Positions 2 through 44,493 of a stretch of DNA of 58,369 nt are shown piece after piece. The stretch is from assembly GCA_022842905.1 (NCBI GenBank), contig JALHOS010000003.1, positions 1 to 58,369 on the forward strand, written 5' to 3'. A model generated the notes under the pieces. It was not told the DNA's origin, ran no database searches, and saw nothing but the letters and a program-made list of their open reading frames with translations. A program made the position numbers and the translations under genes. How positions within the stretch are numbered: the first letter of the stretch is position 1; every line of letters starts with the position of its first letter. The stretch comes from Myxococcaceae bacterium (GTDB lineage Bacteria > Myxococcota > Myxococcia > Myxococcales > Myxococcaceae).

Positions 2-955
2 GCCGATCGCCGCGTCGACGTGCTCCTCGCCGGCGAGCGGGTGTCGGGTGAGCTCACCCCGCTGGGCGTGCGCTGGCAGGGCGAGGTGCCCGAGGCGGCG
101 CGCTTCGTCGCGCGCACGCTGGACTTCGCGGCGCGGGCCCACGGGGCGGAAGGGCCCGGGCTGAGCGTGGCCTTCGCGCCGTCACCGCTGATCGACGGGC
201 GGAAGCTCGGCCTGGGCAGCAGCGCGCGCGCGTGCTGTCTGGCGGCGGAGGCGGCGCGCTGGGCTTTTGGGGCGTCCTTCGACACCTTGAGGCTGGCGCT
301 GCTCGCCCACGCCGATGCGCAGGGCGGGAAGGGCAGCGGCGGAGACGTGGCGGCCTGCTTCGCCGGCGGGCTGGTCCGCTACCGCCGGTACGACGTGGCC
401 AGCTTGGCCGACGCCGGTCGGAAGCCAGGGTTCGGCTCCGCGCTGCTCGGCGCCGCGCCAGTCGAGCTGTCGCAGCTGCGCATCGGCCCGGCGCACTGGC
501 TCTACGCGTACACCGGCACCAGCGCCTCGACGCCGGTTCGCGTGCAGGGCGTCGAAGCCAAGCTGGGGCCCGAGGCCCGCCGCGTCTTCGTCGACTCGTC
601 GGATCGCCTGTCCGAGCAGCTCGAGCGGGCGCTGGTGAGCCACGACTTCGCCGATGCGGTGGCGACGCTCGCCGAGCTGCAGGCGCTCCTGAGCACGCTC
701 ACCAGCGAGCCGGACGAAGCGCTCAGCCGAATCTTGGCCATGGCGCGCGCGTTCGGCGGCGGGGGCAAGCAGTCCGGCGCGGGCGGGGGCGACGGCGCGC
801 TGCTGCTCGCCCCGTCCGTCGAAGCGGCCGCGGCCCTGCGCGACAGCCTGGTGGCGCGGGGGTTCCACGCGTTCTTCGTGCGTGCGGAACCCGGCCTGGG
901 TGGCGAAGCGCAGCCGGACGCCGAGCTGACCGCCTGGCTCGACGTCGCGGCCTGA
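2..955 (+). CDS. Phosphomevalonate kinase (GHMP family), 5' end outside window
   Basis: GHMP-superfamily small-molecule kinase, most likely phosphomevalonate kinase, which makes mevalonate diphosphate from ATP and phosphomevalonate for isoprenoid synthesis. The ATP-binding motif GLGSSA is clear, and the C-terminal SGAGGGDG motif is typical of this kinase. The frame is open back to base 2 and reads ADRRV before the first possible start (GTG at 20). This resembles the N-terminal region of the family after its start, so the true start lies upstream and 317 residues are visible. Myxobacteria are known to use the mevalonate route; other pathway genes probably lie upstream. Mevalonate kinase is the main alternative. 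Confidence 0.85.
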   Translation, partial: ADRRVDVLLAGERVSGELTPLGVRWQGEVPEAARFVARTLDFAARAHGAEGPGLSVAFAPSPLIDGRKLGLGSSARACCLAAEAARWAFGASFDTLRLALLAHADAQGGKGSGGDVAACFAGGLVRYRRYDVASLADAGRKPGFGSALLGAAPVELSQLRIGPAHWLYAYTGTSASTPVRVQGVEAKLGPEARRVFVDSSDRLSEQLERALVSHDFADAVATLAELQALLSTLTSEPDEALSRILAMARAFGGGGKQSGAGGGDGALLLAPSVEAAAALRDSLVARGFHAFFVRAEPGLGGEAQPDAELTAWLDVAA

Positions 956-4323: not shown

Positions 4324-4418
4324 CGATGGGGCATGGGAATCGAACCCACCAGCCGACGCTCGCGCGGCAACTCGCTGGTTTTGAAGACCAGGCCCATCAC
4401 CAGATGGGCCGCCCCACC
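4324..4418 (-). tRNA. selC: tRNA-Sec (TCA), selenocysteine tRNA
   Basis: Minus-strand tRNA of 95 bases. It has an 8-bp acceptor stem, GGTGGGGC with GCCCCATC, discriminator G at 4324, and a long D stem (GGCCCAT/ATGGGCC). The anticodon stem CTGGT/ACCAG has loop CTTCAAA, giving anticodon TCA. A long variable arm and the T arm GTGGG-TTCGATT-CCCAT follow. The 8+5 arrangement, G discriminator and TCA anticodon together identify selC. CCA is not encoded. The organism should therefore decode UGA as selenocysteine; selA, selB and selD are not in the window. Confidence 0.95.
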
Positions 4419-40716: not shown

Positions 40717-40908
40717 TCAGCTGTTCTGATGCTGGTTCAGCACGTCGTTGGGAGACGGCATGCGGCGCAGATCCGTCCGCGCCAACTTCCACGCCTGTTG
40801 GACGATCCACGAGAGCGACCGATCCTGGCGCTGCGCTTCCCGCTCGATCTCGTTGAGCATTTCTTCGGGGAAGTACAGCGACTGCTTGCGGTGATCCGTG
40901 GTTGACAT
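40717..40908 (-). CDS. TIGR04563-type small protein, copy 2
   Basis: 63 residues. HRKQSLYFPEEMLNEIEREAQ and QDRSLSWIVQQAWKLAR are the signature of a small Myxococcales family (I recall TIGR04563) that looks like a ribbon-helix-helix DNA-binding fold: one strand followed by two helices. Start codon shares one base with the stop of copy 1. The C-terminal tail (MPSPNDVLNQHQNS) differs from copy 1. Possibly a dimeric regulator; not tested. Confidence 0.85.
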   Translation of the reverse strand: MSTTDHRKQSLYFPEEMLNEIEREAQRQDRSLSWIVQQAWKLARTDLRRMPSPNDVLNQHQNS

Positions 40909-41108
40909 CAGCGATCCTCTTTCGGGTCCGGCAGGCCGGCCACGTCATTCACCGCGGGGAACGCCTTGATCCGCTCCCGCGCAATCTTCCACGCCTGCTG
41001 CACGACCCAGGACAGCGACCGGTCTTGCCGGTTCGCCTCTTCTTGGATCTCCTTGAGCATTTCCTCGGGGAAGTAGAGCGACTGCTTCCGCTTGTCGGTA
41101 CCGGACAT
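40908..41108 (-). CDS. TIGR04563-type small protein, copy 1
   Basis: 66 residues, about 70 percent like copy 2 over the core by eye: KRKQSLYFPEEMLKEIQEEAN, QDRSLSWVVQQAWKIAR. The strand-helix-helix layout resembles CopG/Arc proteins. The ATG at 41108 has TGGAGAC upstream and a sigma70-type promoter further up. It overlaps copy 2 by one base, so the two are made together and could form heterodimers. No toxin gene follows, so a toxin-antitoxin role is not indicated. Confidence 0.85.
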   Translation of the reverse strand: MSGTDKRKQSLYFPEEMLKEIQEEANRQDRSLSWVVQQAWKIARERIKAFPAVNDVAGLPDPKEDR

Positions 41109-41159
41109 GTGTTGACGGTCTCCAGGGAGGGGACTTCAAAACGTGAGAAAGCAGGAACG

Positions 41160-41188
41160 TTTATGCGACACCCGCCCGCACGGGTCAA
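41160..41188 (-). promoter_or_regulatory. Promoter of the TIGR04563 pair
   Basis: Minus strand: -35 TTGACC (41188-41183), 17-base spacer, -10 CATAAA (41165-41160; 4 of 6 match). The predicted leader to the ATG at 41108 is about 45 bases. Confidence 0.6.
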
Positions 41189-41219
41189 CCATTTCCCAGA
41201 CCTGCTAAGGCCGGCGTTC

Positions 41220-43286
41220 ATGGTGCGTTGGGTCGTCGTCTCGATGGCATGGCTGCTCGCACAGGGCTGTTCGTGCGGTGGGCAGGTGCAGCAGATCACG
41301 CCGGAGCTCGCGGTGACCCCGGCTGGGCTCGACTTCGGCAAGGTCAAGGTCGGCGGCCAAGCGACGCGCGCGCTGCGGCTCGAAGCGAAGACCAACGCCC
41401 TGGTGCAGATCACGCGGCTGACCGTCGAAGGCGCTGACGCGTCGGCGTTCACGGTCGGCGCCGTGGCGTCGGTCGAAGCGCTGGGGACCGCGGACCTGCC
41501 CGTGACCTTCCAGGCGACTGGGACGGACGTCGCGGTGGGCAGCCTGGTGATCGAGACCAACAGCCCGACGACGCCGAAGCTCACCGTCCCGCTCGTGGGC
41601 GAAGGCGCCGTCCCGACGATCGGCGTCGACCTGGAGTGCCGCGCGATGGCGCCGGACAACTGCGTGGGCAGCGTGACGGCCTCGCCGCGGGCCATCGACT
41701 TTGGTGCTGAGCCGCTGCGACGGGTGACGCCGCTCCCCGTGACTCGGCTGCCGGCCGTCTTCGTGCGCAACGCGGGGCTGGTGGACGTGACCGTGCGCGC
41801 CGTGCGGCTTGGGGGCGCCGACGCCGCGGCGTTCACGGTCGAAGGCCTGCCGCCGCTGCCACCGCAGGGCCAGGTGCTCGCCGAAGGAGAAGGCTTCAAC
41901 GTGCGCGTGCGCTTCGTGCCCAGGTCAGCCACGCAGGCGAGCTACGCCGCCACGCTGACGGTCGAGTCCGACGACGCCAGTGCCCCGGCGATCGTCATCG
42001 CGCTGCGAGGCACCTTGCTGCCCAACGCCGCGCCGCAGGTCTGCGCCAACGTGGTGCGCGTCGTCCCTGCGGCGGCGGGAGATGCGCCTCGCGAGTACGG
42101 CGGCGCGTCGTTCTGGACCACCATGCCTGGGCCGGAGGTGGACCTGAGCCTCGTGCGCGACGTGCGACCCGGAGACACCGTGCAGCTGTCGGCGACGCTC
42201 GATGCCGCCAACCCCGCCACCTGCTCCTTCGATCCCGAGGACGGTCGGCAGCTGTCGTACGCGTGGTCCGTCGTGTCGGGGCCTCCCGGGGTCCCGCTGC
42301 CGGCGCTCACTGGCGCGACGTCCGCCCTCGCGCGCCTGACGCCGGTCGCCGTCGGCAACTATGTGGTGGAGCTGACCGTCCGCGACAGCGCCATGGCCAG
42401 CGCGACGGTGCGGCTGCGCTTCGCTGCGCGGCTCAAGAAGGACCTCGTGGTGCAGCTCGAGTGGCCCGGCTACGCCAACGTCGACCTCGACCTGCACCTG
42501 GTCCGGCCGTCCGCGGTGAGCGACGTGAACGATCCGTTCAGCGGGGCGTTCTCGTACTTCGGGGCGGGGCCGTCGGGACGAACCAGCGGCGATCTCAACG
42601 GCTACGCGGCGTCGCTCGCGCGCAGCGATCCGGGCCGCTTCGACTTCGACTGGGGTGACGCGGGCACGGACGACAACCCGGCGTTGGACGTCGACGACAA
42701 AGGCATGGGTGGGCTCGTCGAGAGCGTGTCGCTGAACTACCCCGAGCGAGACGAGCGCTGCGCCACGCAGCCCTGCCGGTACCGGGTGTACGCGCACTAC
42801 TTCAAAGATCTGCGGCCGATCCCGACCGCGGCGTGCTTCGTCGACGGCGGCGCGGCCTGCGGGGACGGCGACGGCTGCAACTGCACGCCAAGCAGCCGCT
42901 GCGTCGCCTCCAACGCGGACGCAGGGGTGGGGCCGGGGCTCTGCTTCGATCAGCCCAAGCCGCAGCTGCGCTTCTTCTTCTTCGGCAGCGCGACCCCGAA
43001 CGCCGTCGTTCCGCTCGAAGGTCTCATGCCGCCCAACCGCGTCACGCTCGGCGCGCCCTGCGCGTTGATGTACCTGGCCGACGTCGTGTGGCCCAACCGG
43101 GCGCTGATCGGCTCGCTGCCAGACGGAGGCAGCCCGCCGCCGCAGGTGGTCGCCCAGGGGACTGACGGCGGGGTTCGAATTGAGCAGCCCATTGTCCGCG
43201 CGTACGGCCGGCGGGCGCTGGGGCAGGACCTTCAGTGCGTGTCCAACGACGACCGCAGCGGCACGGCCTGGTACGCGCCGCAGTGA
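41220..43286 (+). CDS. Large lipoprotein with Ig-like (choice-of-anchor D) and PKD-type repeats
   Basis: 688 residues. Signal peptide then Cys (AWLLAQGCSCGG). Two beta-sandwich repeats of the choice-of-anchor-D/ASH type follow (AVTPAGLDFGKVKVGG at about 30 and SPRAIDFGAEPL at about 160), then a PKD-like repeat (SYAWSVVSGPPGVPLPALTG at about 345). A C-terminal domain of about 250 residues begins VQLEWPGYANVDLDLHLVRP and includes a Cys-rich loop (ACGDGDGCNCTPSSRC). The DLDLHL form resembles bacterial surface proteins that bind Ca. ATG at 41220 is chosen for the signal peptide. Confidence 0.78.
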   Translation: MVRWVVVSMAWLLAQGCSCGGQVQQITPELAVTPAGLDFGKVKVGGQATRALRLEAKTNALVQITRLTVEGADASAFTVGAVASVEALGTADLPVTFQATGTDVAVGSLVIETNSPTTPKLTVPLVGEGAVPTIGVDLECRAMAPDNCVGSVTASPRAIDFGAEPLRRVTPLPVTRLPAVFVRNAGLVDVTVRAVRLGGADAAAFTVEGLPPLPPQGQVLAEGEGFNVRVRFVPRSATQASYAATLTVESDDASAPAIVIALRGTLLPNAAPQVCANVVRVVPAAAGDAPREYGGASFWTTMPGPEVDLSLVRDVRPGDTVQLSATLDAANPATCSFDPEDGRQLSYAWSVVSGPPGVPLPALTGATSALARLTPVAVGNYVVELTVRDSAMASATVRLRFAARLKKDLVVQLEWPGYANVDLDLHLVRPSAVSDVNDPFSGAFSYFGAGPSGRTSGDLNGYAASLARSDPGRFDFDWGDAGTDDNPALDVDDKGMGGLVESVSLNYPERDERCATQPCRYRVYAHYFKDLRPIPTAACFVDGGAACGDGDGCNCTPSSRCVASNADAGVGPGLCFDQPKPQLRFFFFGSATPNAVVPLEGLMPPNRVTLGAPCALMYLADVVWPNRALIGSLPDGGSPPPQVVAQGTDGGVRIEQPIVRAYGRRALGQDLQCVSNDDRSGTAWYAPQ

Positions 43287-43321: not shown

Positions 43322-43357
43322 AAAAAGAGGGAGAGGCCGGACAAGCCGACCTCTCCC
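43322..43357 (-). terminator. Intrinsic terminator of the candidate sRNA
   Basis: Minus-strand arms GGGAGAGG (43357-43350) and CCTCTCCC (43336-43329), with further inner pairs 43338-43340/43346-43348, followed by TCTTTTTG. On the plus strand the hairpin is preceded by A5 and has no T tract after it, so it works mainly for minus-strand RNA. Confidence 0.8.
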
Positions 43358-43457
43358 GTGAGCCCTGGAGGGGAGGGGGGACCCCAGGGCCCAACACTTC
43401 AAAATTTCCCTCGGAACAACCACCGAGCCGCCGAGCCATTCCCACCCGGCGAAAGAC
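43322..43457 (-). ncRNA. Candidate trans-acting small RNA with C-rich loop
   Basis: Not a protein gene. The minus strand has a promoter (43464-43492), then about 136 bases with three hairpins and an intrinsic terminator with five Ts. Hairpin 1 has arms 43410-43414/43423-43427 (5 bp). Hairpin 2 has arms 43362-43368/43384-43390 (7 bp) and a 15-base loop read on the RNA as GGUCCCCCCUCCCCU. Hairpin 3 is the terminator. C-rich loops like this pair with GGAGG ribosome sites in several known bacterial sRNAs. The three-hairpin form recalls the myxobacterial sRNA Pxr, but I cannot compare sequences. It lies between the lipoprotein gene and tilS, both on the other strand. Confidence 0.6.
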
Positions 43458-43463
43458 GAAGTG

Positions 43464-43492
43464 ATCATAAGTGTCGCAGCTAGGACGAGCAA
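43464..43492 (-). promoter_or_regulatory. Sigma70-type promoter of the candidate sRNA
   Basis: Minus strand: -35 TTGCTC (43492-43487), 17-base spacer, -10 TATGAT (43469-43464; 5 of 6 match TATAAT). The predicted start is about 43457. Confidence 0.65.
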
Positions 43493-43530: not shown

Positions 43531-44493
43531 GTGGAAGATCAGTGGGTTCACCAATTTGAGGCGACCGTCACGCAGCGCGTGCTCGAGCTGGCTGGGCCGA
43601 GTGCGCCGATCCTGATCGCGGTGTCCGGCGGCCCCGACTCCGTGTGCCTGGCGCGCGCCTGTGTCGAAGGGCCCCTGGGTCGGCGGGTGGTGTTGGCCAC
43701 GGTCGATCATGGGCTGCGTGCCCAAAGCGGGGCGGAAGCGCAGTTCGTCTCCCACTTGGCCCATGTTTGGAAGGTCCCGCACCACACTCGCCGCGTGGCC
43801 CTGGCGGACGGAGCGGGGCTCGAGGCGCGCGCACGGACGGCCCGCTACCAAGCGCTCGAAGCGCTGCGGCGTGACCTTGGACCGACCGCCGTCATCGCCA
43901 CCGCGCACACCCGCGACGACCAGGCCGAGACGGTGCTCATGCGCCTGGGTCGAGGCTCGGCGTTGCGGGGCGCTGCCGGCATTCTCCCTCGGCGCGGTGC
44001 CGTGCTGCGGCCGCTCCTGTTCGCCTCGCGCGCGGACGTGCTGCGGCACCTGCGCCTGCGCGGCGTGCCCTGGGTCACGGACGCGATGAACGTGGATCCT
44101 CGGTTCACTCGGGTCCGCCTGCGCTTGGACGTGCTGCCGAGCCTCAGCCGCGCCCTGGGCCCCGGAGTCGGCGCGTCCCTCGCGCGCTTCGCCGAGCTTT
44201 CGCGGGAAGACGACCAGCTCCTCCAGTCACTGGCAGACGCCGCAGCGCTCCGGCTGTCGAAGGGCGGCAAGCTCGAACGGGTGGGCTTCTGCGCGCTGGA
44301 GCGGCCGATCGCCCGGAGGGTCGTCGCGCGTTGGCTCGAGGTGCAGGGCGCGAGCGTGGACCTGGGGGCCGTCGAGGCCTGCCTGACGTGCGCGGCCACC
44401 CGACGTGCCCAGCCGTTGCCAGGCGACCGCCTCGTCCAGTCGGCGGACGGGTGGCTGACGGTCGTCGCCGCACCTCCCCGATCGCTTCGGTGA
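43531..44493 (+). CDS. tilS: tRNA(Ile)-lysidine synthase
   Basis: 320 residues. Adds lysine to C34 of tRNA-Ile(CAU) with ATP, changing its codon from AUG to AUA; essential. PP-loop motif is VSGGPDSVCLAR near residue 30, with VDHGLR, ATAHTRDDQAETVLMRL and RGSALRGAAG as further family marks. The length corresponds to the short form; the second C-terminal domain of E. coli TilS (about 430 residues) is mostly absent. GTG start at 43531. It lies 83 bases before ftsH, an adjacency often seen in bacteria. Confidence 0.92.
   Translation: MEDQWVHQFEATVTQRVLELAGPSAPILIAVSGGPDSVCLARACVEGPLGRRVVLATVDHGLRAQSGAEAQFVSHLAHVWKVPHHTRRVALADGAGLEARARTARYQALEALRRDLGPTAVIATAHTRDDQAETVLMRLGRGSALRGAAGILPRRGAVLRPLLFASRADVLRHLRLRGVPWVTDAMNVDPRFTRVRLRLDVLPSLSRALGPGVGASLARFAELSREDDQLLQSLADAAALRLSKGGKLERVGFCALERPIARRVVARWLEVQGASVDLGAVEACLTCAATRRAQPLPGDRLVQSADGWLTVVAAPPRSLR

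What the first reader, a model, noticed from the sequence alone, without database searches (positions are those of the whole stretch)
43322..43492. Unannotated small RNA with promoter, C-rich loop and terminator
The minus strand carries TTGCTC-17-TATGAT, then about 136 bases with three hairpins, then an 8-bp terminator stem with TTTTT. The middle hairpin exposes a 15-base loop rich in C with CCUCCCC, complementary to GGAGG/GGGGAGG ribosome sites. Nothing on this strand within the gap encodes a protein, yet promoter and terminator agree in direction and spacing. C-rich anti-SD loops are a known sRNA device. Three hairpins also describe the myxobacterial sRNA Pxr.
Basis: partly seen in the sequence, partly recalled or inferred. 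Interest (0 to 1): 0.8.

Follow-up and report, generated by a model that had tools for sequence, protein, structure and literature searches.

The report
Conserved C-rich-loop small RNA of myxobacteria
The gap next to the tRNA-modifying gene tilS encodes a small RNA kept at the same place, with a nearly unchanging C-rich loop, throughout the myxobacterial class Myxococcia; it probably blocks ribosome-binding sites of messenger RNAs and matches no RNA family that I could find described.

Summary
Minus strand 43457-43322 carries a TTGCTC-17-TATGAT promoter, a 12-bp hairpin with an 11-base C-rich loop, and a 12-bp terminator stem with a U tract. A covariance model of hairpin plus terminator finds it in 126 of 145 genomes of the order and 127 of 147 of the class, almost always one copy, next to and divergent from tilS, and in no sampled genome of other classes of the phylum. 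A DNA-pattern scan of about 85,000 species genomes hit only myxobacterial DNA. Over 79 distinct sequences the stem pairs in 99.6% of cells, with two-sided changes at 9 of 12 pairs, while the loop word CCCCUCCC never changes. G-U pairs fix the transcribed strand as minus. Rfam 15 has no match. It is not Pxr: Myxococcus genomes hold both at separate loci; they share only the C-rich-loop design. Hosts tested lack Hfq. Most likely it is a trans-acting, Hfq-independent small RNA whose loop imitates the anti-Shine-Dalgarno sequence and prefers G-rich ribosome sites (inferred; loop-SD energies computed; no conserved target found). Expression and targets are untested here. New member of a known kind.

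The parts
43464..43492 (-). Sigma-70-type promoter TTGCTC-N17-TATGAT of the small RNA
   Evidence: Read directly; TTGNNN-16..18-TANNNT in 56 of 87 distinct homologous upstreams vs 2.6% of shuffles
43322..43457 (-). Small RNA gene, about 136 nt (start inferred about 7 nt after the -10 hexamer)
   Evidence: Promoter, terminator and conserved core agree in direction and spacing
43396..43457 (-). Variable 5' domain; holds a partly conserved GRAAU motif (GGAATG, 43442-43437) 47 nt before the core
   Evidence: Alignment and folding of 30 homologues
43359..43393 (-). Core hairpin: 12-bp stem, loop UCCCCCCUCCC at 43381-43371; invariant word CCCCUCCC
   Evidence: 99.6% of cells paired, 9 of 12 pairs with two-sided changes in 79 distinct sequences; CCCCUCCC in 79 of 79
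43322..43357 (-). Intrinsic terminator: 12-bp stem 43357-43329, tail TCTTTTT
   Evidence: six outer pairs covary

Best explanation
It is the gene of a stand-alone, trans-acting small RNA of about 136 nt, made from its own sigma-70-type promoter divergently from tilS and ended by an intrinsic terminator (gene and structure: shown by comparative sequence analysis; transcription: inferred). A long covarying stem presents an invariant CCCCUCCC loop. The loop imitates the anti-Shine-Dalgarno end of 16S rRNA and, without Hfq, pairs with G-rich ribosome-binding sites (GGGAGG to GGGGAGGGG), repressing their translation (inferred). By computed energy it beats 16S rRNA on G-rich sites and loses to it on the canonical AAGGAGGUG, so it would act on a subset of mRNAs rather than on all.
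For: Class-wide single-copy presence at one locus; two-sided covariation of the stem with an unchanging loop; strand fixed by G-U pairs, 99.6% paired on the minus strand against 84.2% on its complement; promoter conservation; Hfq absent in 5 of 5 hosts with a working control, in agreement with PMC5684412; duplex energies GGGGAGGGG -20.5 with loop vs -10.9 with 16S, AAGGAGGUG -9.0 vs -13.9 kcal/mol; GGGGAGGGG-N2-10-ATG is about 3 to 9 times commoner than the reversed control in five hosts; C-rich regions of RoxS, FsrA and PmaR are shown mRNA-binding parts in other bacteria (PMC8216469, PMC6234868).
Against: No transcript data were available. No gene with a perfect 9-base site at its ribosome-binding site is shared between hosts except one yraN pair of two related genera, so no conserved target supports the loop. 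The G-rich enrichment is expected for SD sites in general. An unchanging loop without a conserved target also fits protein binding.
Confidence: 0.6

Rival explanations
1. A small RNA that acts by binding a protein: the C-rich loop on a rigid stem is a decoy or scaffold for a C-binding protein (Rho, a cold-shock protein or a KH/RRM protein), so the loop is held constant by the protein and not by mRNA targets.
For: Loop word constant in 79 of 79 while stem and 5' domain drift; no conserved target found; unpaired C-rich RNA is the known binding preference of Rho (established knowledge).
Against: C-rich loops of known small RNAs usually pair with mRNA; no protein partner is evident.
Confidence: 0.25
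2. A cis-acting element: leader or attenuator of the TIGR04563 ribbon-helix-helix genes that lie downstream on the same strand in many relatives, or an element of tilS.
For: TIGR04563-type genes follow the RNA in many relatives, including M. xanthus and the window (40717-41108).
Against: In the window and its closest relatives a convergent choice-of-anchor D gene of about 2.4 kb lies between them; two terminators separate them in M. xanthus; other families keep the RNA without the neighbour being detected; tilS is on the other strand and the strand test excludes a plus-strand RNA.
Confidence: 0.08
3. Only a strong terminator or boundary between divergent and convergent genes, without RNA function.
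For: Every copy ends in a terminator-like stem; the terminator sequence itself is free to change.
Against: The C-rich hairpin before the terminator is much more conserved than the terminator, has no terminator role, and has its own conserved promoter.
Confidence: 0.03

Closest known systems
Pxr small RNA of Myxococcus xanthus
   Same: Myxobacterial, Hfq-less host, long stem with a C-tract loop (Pxr loop CCCCCCCACCCC), intrinsic-terminator end
   Different: Other locus, sigma-54 promoter, not alignable, middle letter of the C tract is A and not U, so its loop is not complementary to GGAGG; found in Cystobacterineae in the literature while this RNA is class-wide
RoxS/RsaE and FsrA (Bacillus, Staphylococcus)
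   Same: C-rich regions pair with G-rich mRNA sites (PMC8216469)
   Different: Unrelated sequence and several C-rich regions; no Rfam match here
PmaR of Agrobacterium
   Same: Single-stranded C-rich loop on a long stem that binds targets (PMC6234868)
   Different: Unrelated; mostly activates and binds away from the ribosome site
Alphaproteobacterial CCUCCUCCC-loop RNAs (CcsR1, Rfam RF02791; cuckoo RNAs)
   Same: Anti-SD-like CCUCC loop (from knowledge and the Rfam title)
   Different: No Rfam match at this locus; the one weak CcsR1 score is elsewhere in L020 and far below threshold

Membership tests
Pxr | Sequence similarity to pxr (SL1 and SL2 conserved in myxobacteria) | tested here: not met
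   Best local alignment of two Pxr-ancestor pieces to the window RNA is no better than shuffles: 12% and 61% of shuffles reach it
Pxr | Locus next to nla19/pxrR | tested here: not met
   This RNA lies by tilS; Pxr is found at another place in G022, G034, G048 and G037, which also hold this RNA
Pxr | Sigma-54 promoter | tested here: not met
   Conserved TTGNNN-17-TATGAT is sigma-70-type
Any Rfam 15 family | Covariance-model score over the gathering cut-off | tested here: not met
   No match over the element at gathering threshold in the window; at E<=5 in 8 loci the only score there is suhB, 23.1 bits against a cut-off of 41, over the terminators of L006
Trans-acting C-rich-loop small RNAs (kind, not family) | Own promoter and intrinsic terminator in an intergenic region | tested here: met
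Trans-acting C-rich-loop small RNAs (kind, not family) | Conserved single-stranded C-rich loop | tested here: met
Trans-acting C-rich-loop small RNAs (kind, not family) | Regulation of mRNAs by pairing at or near the SD | not testable with these tools
   Energies are compatible, conserved targets not found
Trans-acting C-rich-loop small RNAs (kind, not family) | Detected transcript | not testable with these tools
   No RNA-seq on hand

The most novel reading that the evidence does not exclude
A core, Hfq-independent regulator of translation of a whole bacterial class: one RNA with a fixed anti-SD loop that competes with 16S rRNA for G-rich ribosome sites, with Pxr as a second RNA of the same design whose C tract differs by one letter (A for U) and so reads other targets.
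Probability: 0.2. Interest if true: 0.85.

Novelty: new member of a known kind. Interest (0 to 1): 0.62.

Why it matters
Pxr is the only regulatory small RNA of myxobacteria that I found studied in the papers searched, and these bacteria lack Hfq. A single-copy RNA kept throughout the class, with a loop that does not change over distances at which the neighbouring TilS protein is about 40-50% identical, points to a basic function. It also gives a tractable gene, present in M. xanthus, for testing how small RNAs work without Hfq.

Tried and rejected
Pxr homology: rejected for membership; the model scores Pxr weakly (12-18 bits) because of its C tract, and unrelated CT-rich hairpins (L166, L167) score higher. 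Coding function: C-tract length varies and the ORFs are shadow frames. Plus-strand RNA: rejected by G-U asymmetry. Target search by a perfect 9-base site before ATG in five genomes gave no conserved target; most but not all of the listed sites were fetched. Weak Rfam scores for suhB and CcsR1 are below cut-off and not at the core hairpin. Laying the whole genome for genome-wide target prediction was not possible. Literature searches for a description of this RNA found none; the library holds open-licence papers only, and the main paper on candidate bacterial RNA motifs that I asked for was not held.

Full report
OBSERVATION. The gap between a convergent choice-of-anchor D gene (40902-43286, +) and tilS (43531-44493, +) carries on its minus strand TTGCTC (43492-43487), a 17-base spacer, TATGAT (43469-43464), a folded stretch, and a 12-bp terminator stem (43357-43329) with TCTTTTT. 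The fold of 43462-43320 is -71 kcal/mol, z -2.9, with a 12-bp stem that shows an 11-base C-rich loop, followed directly by the terminator.

CONSERVATION. BLAST with the 221-base stretch found bases 126-198 (C-rich hairpin and terminator) conserved in the family and the order. A pattern for the hairpin found exactly one copy in 57 of 98 relatives and none with the reversed control, and 54 contigs of a collection of about 85,000 species genomes. All are labelled as myxobacteria or as broad Proteobacteria/Deltaproteobacteria bins, except one labelled Comamonas, whose DNA carries the same myxobacterial tilS-ftsH neighbourhood and so looks mislabelled. M. xanthus, Corallococcus, Archangium, Pyxidicoccus, Hyalangium, Citreicoccus and Anaeromyxobacter are among them. 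A covariance model (R1) found it in 126 of 145 genomes of the order, 127 of 147 of the class and none of the listed or tallied sampled genomes of other classes of the phylum. Single copy is the rule; G058 has two C-rich hairpins in tandem, each with its own terminator-like stem (L145). A few extra low-scoring hits in single genomes are unrelated CT-rich hairpins.

ABSENCES. Of 12 order members without a hit that were examined, three also lack a tilS match, so their locus is probably missing from the assembly (G031, G040, G111). In two others a degenerate C-rich hairpin is seen when filters are off (G033, where it lies just upstream of and divergent from tilS, and G077). The rest, among them small genomes of genera g20 and g35, appear to have lost it or changed it beyond recognition.

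NEIGHBOURHOOD. In every locus with a readable neighbour the RNA is divergent from tilS, 110-360 bases from core to TilS match. TIGR04563 ribbon-helix-helix genes lie downstream on the RNA's strand in M. xanthus and in many relatives. In the window and its closest relatives a convergent gene lies in between, so the RNA is not their leader.

STRUCTURE. On 79 distinct sequences the 12-bp helix is paired in 99.6% of cells, 9 of 12 pairs have changes on both sides, and the covariation score of the whole structure is 0.442 against 0.208 +/- 0.008 for shuffles and at most 0.168 for slid partners. That alignment was fitted to the model; the unfitted MAFFT alignment of 30 sequences also pairs all 12 in all rows. 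The word CCCCUCCC is in all 79 sequences. Read as the complementary strand, only 84.2% of helix cells pair, because G-U pairs become C-A. So the functional RNA is the minus strand. The 5' domain is variable and holds a GRAAU motif 37-59 bases before the core in most of the 30 loci examined.

PROMOTER. TTGNNN-16..18-TANNNT occurs in 56 of 87 distinct upstream regions (shuffles 2.6%), the stricter form in 40 (shuffles 0.7%), most often as TTGAAG/TTGCTG-17-TATGAT. Most loci of the Anaeromyxobacter family, of family f7 and part of genus g26 do not show it; their promoter is unknown.

MECHANISM. Shown: a conserved, structured RNA gene with its own promoter and terminator signals. Inferred: transcription, and repression of translation by the loop. 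The hosts tested lack Hfq (0 of 5, control positive), as reported for M. xanthus (PMC5684412). Computed duplex energies favour the loop over 16S rRNA on G-rich sites (GGGGAGG -13.9 against -9.8; GGGGAGGGG -20.5 against -10.9) and 16S over the loop on AAGGAGGUG (-9.0 against -13.9). Each of five hosts has 8 to 52 sites GGGGAGGGG-N2-10-ATG, more than a reversed control, but among the sites followed by a plausible gene only one yraN pair is shared between genera. The pairing targets therefore stay open, and binding of a protein by the loop is a real rival.

KNOWN RELATIVES. Rfam 15 has no match. Pxr is a different gene: G022, G034, G048 and G037 hold both at separate loci, and Pxr has a sigma-54 promoter and other neighbours (PMC5568312). 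Pxr's first hairpin has a C tract broken by A (CCCCCCCACCCC) where this RNA has U. The resemblance is one of design; the model scores it at only 12-18 bits, below unrelated CT-rich hairpins. RoxS/FsrA and PmaR are working precedents for C-rich loops in other phyla.

VERDICT. A real, class-wide, apparently undescribed small RNA family, new member of a known kind; its mode of action is a reasoned proposal.

Noticed in passing
window 4325-4418 (-): Selenocysteine tRNA gene (Rfam RF01852, 71.9 bits).
   Followed up: no
window 40717-41108 (-): Two adjacent TIGR04563 ribbon-helix-helix genes; the same kind of pair lies just downstream of the small RNA in M. xanthus (L068).
   Followed up: partly
L145:986-1163: In genome G058 the C-rich hairpin and terminator are duplicated in tandem, 98 bases apart.
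   Followed up: partly
window 43442-43437 (-): GGAATG motif in the 5' domain, partly conserved among homologues and sometimes in a hairpin loop; role unknown.
   Followed up: partly
L289-L292: Pxr SL1 loop is CCCCCCCACCCC in four genomes: the same C-tract design with one middle letter changed.
   Followed up: partly
L071: Record labelled Comamonas sp. KCTC 72670 carries the myxobacterial locus; probably a mislabelled genome.
   Followed up: no
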